A stretch of 64,000 nucleotides of DNA from Channallabes apus (taxonomy: Eukaryota > Chordata > Actinopteri > Siluriformes > Clariidae), in assembly GCA_030522415.1 (NCBI GenBank), contig CM060113.1, positions 8,959,065 to 9,023,064 of the forward strand, given 5' to 3'. The notes under the pieces were generated by a model. It had not been told where the DNA came from. It searched no databases and saw nothing but the letters and a program-made list of their open reading frames with translations. A program made the position numbers and the translations under genes. Below are positions 31,956 to 62,021 of this stretch, one piece after another. Every line of letters begins with the position of its first letter. Position 1 is the stretch's first letter.

Positions 31956-32075
31956 GTTGTTTATTTGAAAACTGGAAGGTGAGTTGCTATATAAGTTGCT
32001 TATTACTTGTGTTCTTCTGAACATGTGCACAAAACATAGCAGTTATGCAGTAGTAAAGTGAAAAGCAAATATTGG

Positions 32076-33564
32076 TCAGTAGCCGTGACGTTTAAACCAC
32101 TGAGCCCGGGCCACCACGTCATTGGCATAATCATCTCCTGTGGTACCGATGTCCATGCGCTCATACGTGCGGACGTTGCCTGGGCCAGCATTGTAGGCTG
32201 AGATTCCCCCTAAACCGAGAGAAACATGACAGAGGACAGTAATAAATGAAATGTGAACAAATTTATTGTAATAAACTATAATAGGATAAAAGTTACCACT
32301 CAGAAGATCTTTGTATTGATTTGCAGCAGTGATATTAAGTGGATACTAATTTTCATTCATTTGATGATATTTCAATATTTAAAAAATCTGAACAAGTTGC
32401 TAAGGGATGAAAAAAAGTTCAAGAGCCATACAATGGTCCTCTAATATACTTGTGAATGAATTTCCAATTACAATTGTTGGTTATTTAATGCAACACAGAC
32501 CACAAAGTGTCAGTTTGTACCTTTAAATTGGTGCTCCTTGGGCCAGCTGGGGAATTTCTTTTGAATTGCTTGAATGGATTGTATTAGAATTTCAGTGCCT
32601 TGGGTGACGTGTTCCTCGCAGTTCCAGGCTCCTCTTGGAGTGTGATGGCGCTTGTCAACCTAAAGACAAAACAAGTGAGCAAGATCATATCAATTCCATG
32701 CATTCCATGTATACGCCATGTATACATGGTGGAGCTTATTCACATCATCAAATTTGTTCCTTTATTCAAATGACCTAGTATCTAACTTCCCTAATCACTG
32801 AGCCACCAGTGAACTGCTTACAAATCAGTATAAAATCCTTAATGCATTACACTAGTTATATTTTCAACAAGAAATCATAACCTTTTGGAGTAAATGTCTC
32901 ATTTTTACTGCATTAGAATCCATAAGCTCCATCATGTTGACTTGTTTTTCTAACATGTAGTAACCCATGGCCACTCCTTTCAACAACTGTAACTTCCACT
33001 CTTACCTCACATCCTAACCGCATTACAAAGGGTTTAACTCTAACCCTACCTGCATGAGACCAAAGCCGTTGCCATGGTCTCCCCAGCCATTCACAAGCGC
33101 TGCTCCAGCCCTCGACTCTCTGGATATGATGCCTGCGATCACAGCTGGGTCCATCTGGTTCGCTCTACCGACTTTGATGATGATGCTCTTGTACTGGTCC
33201 ATCTTCTTCAGATCATGCTCAGCCAGTTTGTACGATGCTTCCACCCCTATAAAAGGAATCATTCATCAATAATCGTTTTCTCATGTCCAATTTCAAAACA
33301 AACATACAGAAGTGTGCACTTTTTATATTACCTTTTACAGTAAGTTTGTCCTGCCTAGCTGTTCTTTCTGACGCCCCAGTAGTTTGGATCTTTGTGATGT
33401 CTCCAAAAATGCAGGCTAAGAAAGAAATTACGAAAATAATCCAAAAACACAGAGAATCAGCCAGCTTTGCAAAAAAAAAAAAATTGAATAAACATATAGA
33501 TAACTATAAAGCATTTAATAGAAACCAAAACATGTTAATCAGGTACTTAAATATACTCACCCAT
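32076..33564 (-). CDS. lyg-A: goose-type lysozyme, intact five-exon gene (185 aa, no signal peptide)
   Basis: Muramidase of glycoside hydrolase family 23, cleaving the beta-1,4 bond between N-acetylmuramic acid and N-acetylglucosamine in bacterial walls. Minus exons: 33564-33561, 33415-33332, 33246-33050, 32659-32521 and 32209-32076, with canonical borders and phases 1,1,0,1. The protein starts MACIFGDITKIQTTGASE. Goose-lysozyme residues fall at their classical numbers: catalytic E73 in SRESRAG, D86 in GWGDHGN and D97 in LMQVD. The C-terminus has AYNAG and ANDVVARAQW. There is no hydrophobic leader, as in many fish g-type lysozymes. A polyadenylation signal AATAAA lies at 31965-31960. An acceptor-like CACTTACAG at 33601 hints at a spliced 5' leader. 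Nearly identical to lyg-C except in exon 5. Confidence 0.95.
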
Positions 33565-33600
33565 GATGGTGCTTGTTACTTCCCTGAACAGAGAATAGAG

Positions 33601-34172
33601 CTGTAAGTGAGGACAATTGTAACTGTTATTGCATACAGTATGTATATCCCTAAATACTTCTTCTATAAATAAAGCAGGAGGAGACATGTTTCAGTGCAAC
33701 ACCCCAACATTAATGAGTCATTTTATACATCAGTCAGAGCAACCTCCGTCTCCAGCGGCTACAGCAGTATACAGAATTCATATTGTTAATATGAATTAAT
33801 TATTATAATTAATATAATAATCATATTAACTATATAATTAGTTATTTTTTGTATTTTAGTTAACTTCCAGTTATGTGCCAAAGGTGACATATCCTACTGC
33901 ACACATATTTCACAGTACATACAAAGCTACCTGGTAATCTCTGGTAACTACAAATGCATCCAAGTAGCAGGAGTGGAAATTGTTCAGTATTTTGTTATTA
34001 ATATTATTATTAGTTATTAATTTTTCATTTAAATTATTCTATTTTTATAATAAAAAAAATTACTTGTATTGAAATAATAATTTCAGTGTCAAAATGTTTT
34101 AATCTGTGGTAACCCTTTCATGCTATGCAACATCATTAGCAATAATGTTAGACTAGCATCTGTTATAGTAAC
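33601..34172. other. lyg-A upstream region shared with lyg-C
   Basis: 33601-33715 is nearly identical to 53948-54063 (GCAGGAGGAGACATGTTTCAGTG, CTATAAATAAAG), so the two genes share a promoter-proximal region. Farther out the copies diverge into AT-rich DNA. Confidence 0.55.
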
Positions 34173-34995
34173 AGGCTTGTGCACAATTCAGAATTGAATT
34201 GAGAATGACTCCTAAATTCCAATTCAATTCTTGAATTTGAATTGAATTTGAATTGATGTCAAAAACAGGATCTAGAATTACAATTCGGAATTGAATTAAA
34301 GGAAGCAGAATTGCAATTCAATACAAATTCAAAGAATTTCATATAAATAAAGTGTTTAACATTGAAGCTTTACAATATATGTCAGATATGATTTCATTAC
34401 ATATTCTATAAATTATATTAGTTTGAACTATTAGTTTCCCTCCAGAAATGAATGTTAAAAGCTCTAGTCACTGAACACATAATTAAGTTTGATTTATTGG
34501 AATTGTAATTTTGTGGAACACAATGGAACATGACTCCATATCCCAGAATGCTTTGCTTTAACCAAGTATTTAAAATGGTTGCCAAACAATTTGAGGTGGA
34601 CATTTGTTTGAAAGCTTCTTTTCTACACAATTTGATGGTCAACACTTGACTTTGTGTTATTTGATTACTTTGAAATGAAAATAACATTTTGAACAAAACT
34701 AATCAAACATGGAGGGAGTAATTTATTTCAAGAATTTGATCATTATCTATATGTTGGAACAAAATGTATGCAGTGTTGAGGAGTGACTAGTTATGTGTAA
34801 TGAAATTATGCTATTAAATTACAAAATTAATGTAATTGTATGTGAGATTCAACACATTCTTTCTGTTGTATGACTGTGTGGAATGCCTTTGAATTGCCAT
34901 GAATTTTAATTCCACTTTCTGTCATTCCAACTCCAATTAAAATTCAACTTCCTGTGGGGCGGAGTCAATTCAATTCAAATTCCAACTCATGAATT
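34173..34995. mobile_element. AATTGAATT-rich interspersed element, probably a non-autonomous DNA transposon
   Basis: Its two ends are dense in TTGAATTG/CAATTCAA and are roughly inverted to one another. It is absent from the homologous place in block 2, where sequence resumes at CCTTGATCTCAACCCAAAATG (35030 versus 55441). Family and exact ends are unsure. Confidence 0.4.
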
Positions 34996-60580: not shown

Positions 60581-60584
60581 GCAA

Positions 60585-60980
60585 ACGACTCACCTGCTTT
60601 TCTGACTCACTTTGACTTCCTCAGCAATATTTAAATCCACCTTTTGTCTTTTATTTGGTTAACACTGTTTAACAAGTAGTCTCTCTTTCTTTTGTTTACT
60701 CTGTATGTGTGCATGCGCGTGACTGGGTGGGTTTATGGTTGCTGAGAGAAAGTGAAAGTAAAGTCACAGCTACAAACGTCACATTTTTGCCAACACATGG
60801 GCAACCAGGAAGACAGGATTAGTGCGAAAAACATGTACATACGTGCACATGCGCGCACACAAACAAGCATTTTCATTCTGCTGAAGTTCAGTTTCGTTCT
60901 GTCTGTTTATATGCAACGAATTTTGAGAAAAGTTACAAACATTTCTAGAAAACTGTTTCATTCTGTCCAGTGATGGGTCA
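60585..60980 (+). promoter_or_regulatory. putative regulatory region of lyg-E with IRF-type element, conserved in block 1
   Basis: Aligns with 37715-38110. GAAAGTGAAAGT at 60748-60759 fits the GAAANNGAAANN interferon-regulatory-factor binding pattern. It lies about 700 bp before lyg-E exon 2. Function inferred. Confidence 0.4.
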
Positions 60981-61450
60981 TACTCAAACAGCTCAGACAG
61001 TCGTATTGGCACTAGTGTGCAGTAGTAAATAGACCGTTCAGACATAACAAGAACACGACCACCACGTGTCATATTCATGTGGCACAAATTGCTGGAAAAA
61101 AAGACTGGCTGAGATGGAAAAGTATCACAACATTTCAAATTTTGTTACACAGTCATCATTTTCTGCTTTAAAAGGTGAAACAAGAGTATTAACTTAAATG
61201 GTACTCTTGAGAAATAAGGAACCTACCAACCCTGGAGTCTATGCTGTTAGAAATAAAAACTGAATATTGTAAATTGCATGCAAAATTGCAAACTTAACTT
61301 CGCATGATACACATGTGATCTATCAGCCTGGACAAAATTGTTTTTTATTTCTAAAGAAACGTCAAAGTTATTTAAAATTAATTAATTAATCGATTAATTG
61401 ATTCATTTATTGATTAGTTGCTCAATTTATTAATTAATTACATTTTCTAG

Positions 61451-62021
61451 AGTGCATTTTTGGAGATCTCATGAAAATCAAAACGACTGGAGCATCTTCC
61501 AAGACAGCTTCCCAGGACAACTACAAAATAACTAGTTTGTTACTTATCTTTCATCCTATCCATAACTTATGATAAAAATATTACACCTGATACTTCAAAT
61601 ATTGTTATTAAAGGTGTAGAAGCCTCACATAAAATGGCTGCATATGATCTGAAGAGGATGGACATGTACAAGCCCATCATCATGAATGTTGCCAGAGCTA
61701 AAAAGTTGGACCCAGAAGTGATTGCAGGCATCATATCGAGAGAGACAAGGGGTGGAACGCGTGCATCGGGGCTTATTGATAGCTGGGGAGATGAAGGCAA
61801 CAGCTTTGGACAAATGCAGGTTTGTTGAAGCAACAAATGCGTAATGCATTTAAACACGACATTATATCAGAGCCTAAATCTATTCTAATTGTTCTTTCTT
61901 AAACTGTTAGATTTTGTTTGTTTGCAAGTTAATATTGCTCCAAAGCGAGCTACGTAGATGGCAGATGACGTGTGATACCATTTTCTTTAGGTTGACAAAC
62001 GTCACCACGATCCAAAGGGAG
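61451..62021 (+). pseudogene. lyg-E: goose-type lysozyme interrupted in exon 4 by a transposon
   Basis: Partner of lyg-B in block 2. Exon 2 is 61451-61534 and exon 3 is 61614-61819, both open and with borders as in lyg-B. Exon 4 starts at 61991 (VDKRHHDPKG) and breaks after 31 nt where a hAT-like end begins (CAGAGGTGGAAAGAGTAAT at 62022). Catalytic Glu in SRETRGG remains, but GWGD is SWGD, LMQ is QMQ, and the exon 2/3 junction codon is Ser instead of Gly. The remainder of exon 4 and exon 5 could lie past the window, beyond the element. I rate it a pseudogene; if the insertion is polymorphic or the gene is spliced around it, that would change. Confidence 0.85.

What the first reader, a model, noticed from the sequence alone, without database searches (positions are those of the whole stretch)
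31960..62021. Two duplicated three-gene lysozyme blocks with reciprocal gene loss
Order and orientation repeat: A(-), dead D-type(+), B(+) and then C(-), D(+), E(+). Pairs A/C, dead-D/D and B/E are each other's best match in the window. Intergenic patches recur in the same order: 33.6-33.7/53.95-54.06, 35.0-35.9/55.4-56.1, 36.4-36.7/57.24-57.54, 37.7-38.1/60.6-60.95 and 42.08-42.2/61.25-61.44 kb. After duplication the secreted type died in block 1 by deletion and the B type was hit by a transposon in block 2, leaving one secreted gene, one B gene and two A-type genes. That is a compact example of a lysozyme set being resorted by duplication and reciprocal decay.
Basis: partly seen in the sequence, partly recalled or inferred. 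Interest (0 to 1): 0.8.

Follow-up and report, generated by a model that had tools for sequence, protein, structure and literature searches.

The report
Duplicated catfish lysozyme block with conversion
A stretch of catfish DNA with three goose-type lysozyme genes was duplicated side by side, after which different copies decayed in the two blocks and one gene pair was partly copied over; it is a clear example of a known way in which immune gene clusters are reshuffled.

Summary
Two blocks (31.96-45.5 and 52.2-62.0 kb) share gene order, orientation and ten collinear matches. The genes are goose-type (GH23) lysozymes of a catfish; the nearest named relatives are Clarias gariepinus proteins. A, B, C and D are open with GT-AG introns. 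Dead-D lost about 525 bp plus exons 1 and 5; E is cut in exon 4 by an insertion that runs past the window.

Four corrections. (1) A/C similarity is mostly secondary: two sharp tracts (5' flank to exon 3; exon 4) are 97% identical, introns included, against 71-85% elsewhere, i.e. gene conversion. (2) A seventh, dead A-type copy lies at 48.44-48.76 kb. (3) The B/E split predates the split from C. gariepinus, which has a full-length E-type protein, so the losses look staggered. (4) A 2.8-kb stretch of block 2 missing from block 1 holds D's last exon and the ancestral B-type first exon; B probably uses a replacement first exon.

Verdict: real and well resolved; a new member of a known kind.

The parts
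31959..45499 (.). Block 1: A, dead-D, B
   Evidence: Ten collinear matches with block 2
52211..62021 (.). Block 2: C, D, E (cut off by the insertion at 62022)
32076..33564 (-). Gene A, 185 aa, no signal peptide. Coding exons 33561-33564, 33332-33415, 33050-33246, 32521-32659, 32076-32209
   Evidence: open frame, GT-AG introns; 93% to C. gariepinus P0001
36204..36746 (+). Dead-D: exon 2 remnant to 36293, fused to the 3' part of exon 4 (36294-36371) by a deletion of about 525 bp; acceptor AG changed to GG; exons 1, 3 and 5 absent
36747..37588 (.). Block 1 counterpart of block 2 57551-60370; holds repeats instead of D exon 5 and the METC first exon
   Evidence: flanking matches 57533-57550/36729-36746 and 60371-60406/37589-37621
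37971..37991 (+). Probable replacement first exon of B (DKEKI, donor AAAA|GTAAGG; start ATG formed at the splice junction)
   Evidence: C. gariepinus P0121 begins MDKEKIMCIFGD; inference from five residues
42211..45499 (+). Gene B exons 2-5: 42211-42294, 42382-42587, 42809-42947, 45366-45499
48445..48764 (-). psiA3: third A-type copy, dead (exon 2 remnant with frameshift, end of intron 3; exons 3, 4 and 5 absent)
52347..53911 (-). Gene C, 185 aa, no signal peptide. Coding exons 53908-53911, 53680-53763, 53142-53338, 52591-52729, 52347-52480
53356..53595 (.). Interspersed repeat in intron 2 of C, absent from A; 98.75% to 31715-31954
32965..33716 (-). A side of conversion tract 1 (5' flank, exons 1-3, start of intron 3); partner 53053-54063 without the repeat
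   Evidence: 97% identity, K2P 0.03; permutation test
32483..32700 (-). A side of conversion tract 2 (exon 4 with flanks); partner 52553-52769
   Evidence: 97% identity, K2P 0.028; permutation test
56300..57854 (+). Gene D, 201 aa, N-terminal signal-like sequence. Exons 56300-56318, 56565-56681, 56764-56960, 57096-57234, 57721-57854
   Evidence: 95% to C. gariepinus P0037
57551..60370 (.). 2.8 kb present in block 2 only; holds D exon 5 and E exon 1
59139..62021 (+). Gene E: exons 59139-59175 (METCEAGSSAKN), 61451-61534, 61614-61819, and the first 31 nt of exon 4 (61991-62021)
62022..64000 (.). Insertion in E exon 4, running past the window; begins CAGAGGTGG, hAT-like by recall
   Evidence: other end not in the window

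Best explanation
A catfish block with an A-type gene (no signal peptide, minus strand), a D-type gene (signal peptide, plus) and a B-type gene (plus) was duplicated in tandem; a third A-type copy (now psiA3) is of about the same age. Afterwards: (1) block 1 lost the equivalent of 2.8 kb of block 2, with the last exon of its D gene and the ancestral first exon of B; dead-D also lost about 525 bp between exon 2 and exon 4, and B now probably uses a replacement first exon from former intron sequence. (2) A and C exchanged sequence by gene conversion in two tracts (5' flank to exon 3; exon 4), probably from A to C, so their enzyme cores are near-identical while exon 5 and the flanks stayed different. 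(3) E was broken by an insertion in exon 4 after the split from C. gariepinus. Shown: block structure, mosaic divergence, open frames, lesions. Inferred: order and direction of events, B's first exon, secretion of D, enzyme activity.
For: Ten ordered matches against 0-1 in seven controls, none in 60 shuffles. A/C identity 97% in two tracts and 71-85% outside; longest low-mismatch stretch (765 columns, 22 mismatches) scores 567 against a maximum of 213 in 2000 permutations, the second (222 columns, 5 mismatches) 177 against 81. dS A/C 0.055 in exons 2-4 and 0.285 in exon 5; B/E 0.281. With psiA3 as third copy, sites shared A-C: A-psi: C-psi are 11:0:1 inside tract 1 and 2:6:8 outside (Fisher P 5e-5). 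Protein differences: exons 2-4 A/C 5 of 139, A/P0001 13 of 139; exon 5 A/C 9 of 43, A/P0001 0 of 43. Tree of 47 proteins: E with P0122 (99/79), B with P0121 and P0124 (100/98). METC first exon in E, none found in block 1.
Against: Noncoding K2P between blocks varies widely (0.06-0.41), so a single date is not proven. At the 5' edge of tract 2 psiA3 is as close to A and C as they are to each other (41 of 44 sites alike in all three, the other 3 shared by C and psiA3), so psiA3 may have joined the exchange there. The A/P0001 contrast rests largely on exon 4; without it A/C is 4 of 93 and A/P0001 5 of 93, and A/P0001 differences are themselves clustered (P 0.007). B's new first exon rests on five residues. 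P0122 is listed with a different contig length (35.17 Mb) from the other C. gariepinus proteins (35.58 Mb), so its map position is unknown.
Confidence: 0.85

Rival explanations
1. One clean block duplication, all pairs of one age, with no later exchange.
For: Exon pairs are mutual best matches; A/C exon 5 and B/E have the same dS.
Against: A/C exons 2-4 dS 0.055, introns 1 and 2 and the 5' flank 97% identical with sharp edges.
Confidence: 0.05
2. A and C are alike in exons 1-4 because of strong purifying selection, not conversion.
For: The tracts contain exons 1-4, which carry the catalytic residues.
Against: Introns 1 and 2 and the 5' flank are equally alike (442 of 455 columns); synonymous sites are too (4.7 of 87.7), while exon 5 is not (7 of 29.5).
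Confidence: 0.02
3. C is a recent duplicate of A that replaced an older copy by unequal exchange, followed by patchwork divergence; conversion is not needed.
For: Would also give near-identity.
Against: Two tracts are separated by mid-intron 3 at 71% identity, and both 5' and 3' flanks are at 75-85%; one recent copy would be alike throughout.
Confidence: 0.05
4. Assembly artefact: two haplotypes or a chimeric contig laid side by side.
For: The whole assembly could not be reached (genome search not answered).
Against: Divergence outside the tracts is far above allelic levels; blocks carry different repeats; C. gariepinus has separate B-type and E-type proteins.
Confidence: 0.03

Closest known systems
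Clarias gariepinus g-type lysozyme set (P0001, P0004, P0037, P0121, P0122, P0124)
   Same: A-, D-, B- and E-type proteins all present; P0122 has E's METC start and P0121 the MDKEKI start
   Different: E-type protein full length (201 aa); gene order, introns and pseudogenes could not be seen, only proteins
Fish lysozyme g tandem clusters such as zebrafish Lyg1-3 and the cod LygF1 set (PMC4243810: abstract, sections 8 and 11 and passages; PMC4914998: passages)
   Same: Recent lineage-specific duplication, mostly without signal peptides, some copies decayed
   Different: Here a multi-gene block is duplicated and conversion tracts are visible; 'gene conversion' does not occur in either paper's main text
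Concerted evolution of lysozyme c genes in ruminants and rodents (PMC3141428, passages)
   Same: Homogenisation between paralogous lysozyme genes
   Different: A different, unrelated lysozyme family (c-type)

Membership tests
Goose-type lysozyme (GH23) | Sequence match over the length to solved g-lysozymes | tested here: met
   C 1.4e-81 and B 4.6e-65 over nearly the full length; D exon 3 region 3.5e-26; A not run alone but 92% identical to C
Goose-type lysozyme (GH23) | Catalytic Glu73 and Asp86/Asp97 (goose numbering, PMC4243810 passages) | tested here: met
   SRE, WGD and QVD in A, B, C and D; also in E up to the insertion
Goose-type lysozyme (GH23) | Pfam SLT domain above the curated cut-off | tested here: inconclusive
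   A 28.3 and C 24.6 bits above 21.3; B 15.1 below; D and E not run full length
Goose-type lysozyme (GH23) | Muramidase activity | not testable with these tools
   needs protein
Tandem block duplication | Collinear matches in and between genes in the same order and orientation | tested here: met
   10 ordered of 22 low-copy matches; controls 0-1
Gene conversion | Sharply bounded near-identity that includes introns | tested here: met
Gene conversion | Different relationships inside and outside the tract when a third copy is compared | tested here: met
   11:0:1 inside tract 1, 2:6:8 outside; at the tract 2 edge 0:0:3 does not separate them
Gene conversion | Paralogs closer to each other than to orthologs inside the tract | tested here: inconclusive
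   exon 4 yes (1 against 8 of 46), exons 2-3 no clear difference (4 against 5 of 93); proteins only
hAT-type transposon in E | Two terminal inverted repeats and a target duplication | not testable with these tools
   The insertion runs past 64000; the last 300 bases show no clear terminal repeat

The most novel reading that the evidence does not exclude
A single lesion in block 1 (the missing 2.8-kb equivalent) removed both the last exon of the secreted D copy and the ancestral first exon of its neighbour B; B survived by recruiting a new first exon from its own former intron, while conversion moves promoter-plus-core cassettes between the non-secreted A-type genes. The cluster would then reshuffle secretion and expression by exon-sized steps, not only by gain and loss of whole genes.
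Probability: 0.4. Interest if true: 0.5.

Novelty: new member of a known kind. Interest (0 to 1): 0.36.

Why it matters
Fish g-lysozyme families are known to turn over by lineage-specific duplication. This locus shows the turnover at base resolution: block duplication, staggered loss, conversion between paralogs and a probable change of first exon. It warns that trees built from whole coding sequences of these genes can mix histories, and it makes the role of conversion in fish lysozyme clusters testable by aligning the same locus from other catfish.

Tried and rejected
Uniform-age duplication without exchange, purifying selection, replacement by a recent copy, and assembly error were set aside for the reasons given under rivals. 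A sensitive search of 45.6-52.2 kb for further relics of the blocks found psiA3 and interspersed repeats, nothing else at E 1e-3. A search for a METC-type first exon in block 1 found none; the only weak match there (19 bits, two gaps, 40261-40281) lies in a Tc1-like element. Single-exon Pfam scans found no lysozyme family for four exon pieces; full-length A and C did. Seven literature searches listed no paper whose title or opening abstract lines describe this catfish block or conversion between fish g-lysozymes; three of the lists were capped (15 of 90, 15 of 17, 20 of 30), and most papers were seen as listings only. A clustering test of amino-acid differences was mixed: clustered in 3 of 6 within-species pairs (A/C P 0.004; Hemibagrus P0030/P0014 none of 2000; C. 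gariepinus P0121/P0124 none of 2000, inflated by a differing annotated end) and in 1 of 7 between-species controls (A/P0001 P 0.007).

Rows dropped: the three protein searches listed the best 120 of 808, 809 and 674 hits, 155 different proteins in all; 42 of these, chosen by me, and 5 window proteins went into the tree.

Full report
What is there. The region 31.9-64.0 kb carries seven goose-type lysozyme loci, not six. Four are open with GT-AG introns: A(-), B(+), C(-) and D(+). E(+) is open in exons 1-3 and broken off in exon 4 after base 62021. Dead-D(+) and a newly found A-type relic at 48445-48764 (-) are pseudogenes. The nearest named relatives are Clarias gariepinus proteins: 93% for A (P0001), 95% for D (P0037), and 87% and 89% for B (P0121, and P0124 over 79% of its length). 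The host is therefore a catfish near Clarias; its species was not determined.

The block duplication is real. Matches between 31955-45600 and 52200-64000 numbered 26, of which 22 low-copy; ten lie in the same order on both axes and the other twelve are exon cross-matches among gene types. Seven control pairings had longest ordered runs of 0 or 1, and 60 Markov shuffles gave no match. Exon 3 DNA groups A with C and B with E with 99% and 100% bootstrap, and the dead-D pieces score best against D.

Ages of the pairs. By Nei-Gojobori counts dS is 0.281 for B/E (exons 2-4, the last partial) and 0.285 for A/C exon 5, but 0.055 for A/C exons 2-4; for the four between-type pairs tried it is 0.75 or more over exons 2-4. 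K2P is 0.17 at the A/C 3' end, 0.37 in mid-intron 3, 0.31 upstream, 0.28 and 0.14 in the two stretches between A and D, 0.06-0.24 for dead-D/D pieces and 0.09-0.25 for most B/E pieces; one poorly aligned stretch around B's first exon gives 0.41. The pieces are short and the spread is wide, so one common date is plausible but not proven.

Gene conversion between A and C. Identity rises abruptly to 97% from the 5' flank through exon 3 and again around exon 4, and falls to 71-85% elsewhere, including mid-intron 3 and exon 5. The longest low-mismatch stretch (765 columns, 22 mismatches) scores 567 against a maximum of 213 in 2000 permutations; the second (222 columns, 5 mismatches) scores 177 against 81. 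psiA3 gives an internal control: sites shared A-C: A-psi: C-psi are 11:0:1 inside tract 1 and 2:6:8 in the strictly aligned part outside (Fisher P 5e-5); a wider alignment outside gives 16:15:20. Against this, at the 5' edge of tract 2 all three copies agree at 41 of 44 sites and C and psiA3 share the other three, so psiA3 may have taken part there. On the exon 3 tree nearly all A/C change lies on the C branch, and exons 2-4 of both are nearer to P0001 than to P0004 (13 and 11 against 18 and 19 of 139), which favours A as donor; this is weak. The repeat in intron 2 of C is absent from A and so probably came after the exchange.

When. In a tree of 47 proteins E pairs with P0122 (99/79) and B with P0121 and P0124 (100/98), so B and E separated before the split from C. 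gariepinus. P0122 is full length, so E broke later, in the window's lineage or population. Only one D-type C. gariepinus protein appears among the listed hits, which fits, but does not prove, an early death of dead-D. For the conversion, exon 4 suggests a date after the split and exons 2-3 do not decide.

First exons. E starts at 59139 with METCEAGSSAKN, matching P0122; the B-type proteins of Pangasianodon hypophthalmus (P0111) and Tachysurus ichikawai (P0118) start alike, those of Ictalurus (P0123) and Silurus meridionalis (P0106) as annotated do not. No such exon was found in block 1, which also lacks the last exon of D. Both lie in the 2.8 kb of block 2 (57551-60370) that is missing between 36746 and 37589 of block 1, where repeats now stand. 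C. gariepinus P0121 begins MDKEKIMCIFGD; DKEKI is found at 37971 in the window before a good donor, and the splice junction would create the start ATG. That B uses this exon is an inference from a five-residue match and its position.

Function. A and C have no signal peptide by reading; D has a hydrophobic N-terminus and is the likely secreted form (no predictor was run). The catalytic Glu and both Asp are kept in A, B, C and D. B falls below the Pfam cut-off, although it matches solved g-lysozymes along its length.

Known background. Lineage-specific tandem duplication and frequent lack of signal peptides in fish lysozyme g are established (PMC4243810, abstract, sections 8 and 11 and passages; PMC4914998, passages). 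Concerted evolution is known for lysozyme c in ruminants and rodents (PMC3141428, passages). I therefore file this as a new member of a known kind with an unusually legible history.

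Noticed in passing
48445-48764: Seventh lysozyme locus: a dead A-type copy between B and C, bordered on the exon 4 side by a Tc1-like end (48295-48380).
   Followed up: partly
7143-8258: Unbroken 371-aa Tc1-type transposase frame (minus strand) with HTH and DDE domains.
   Followed up: no
39689-41087 and 43519-44189: Tc1-like element in intron 1 of B (DDE_3 domain at 40297-40848) and a relic of the 6.9-8.4 kb element in intron 4 of B.
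   Followed up: no
31715-31954 and 53356-53595: Two inverted copies of one interspersed repeat, 98.75% identical, one beside A and one in intron 2 of C: recent activity.
   Followed up: partly
37101-37438 and 50753-51100: Inverted copies of a repeat, 83% identical, in the gap of block 1 and just left of block 2; part also near 13.5 kb.
   Followed up: no
P0121 (C. gariepinus): B-type protein with SRATRAG and MQIHQH: the catalytic Glu and one Asp position are changed, as reported for the Glu in cod LygF1a and LygF1d (PMC4914998, passages).
   Followed up: no
P0030/P0014 (Hemibagrus wyckioides): 11 of 14 differences between these two paralogs fall in residues 122-140, another possible exon 4 exchange.
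   Followed up: partly
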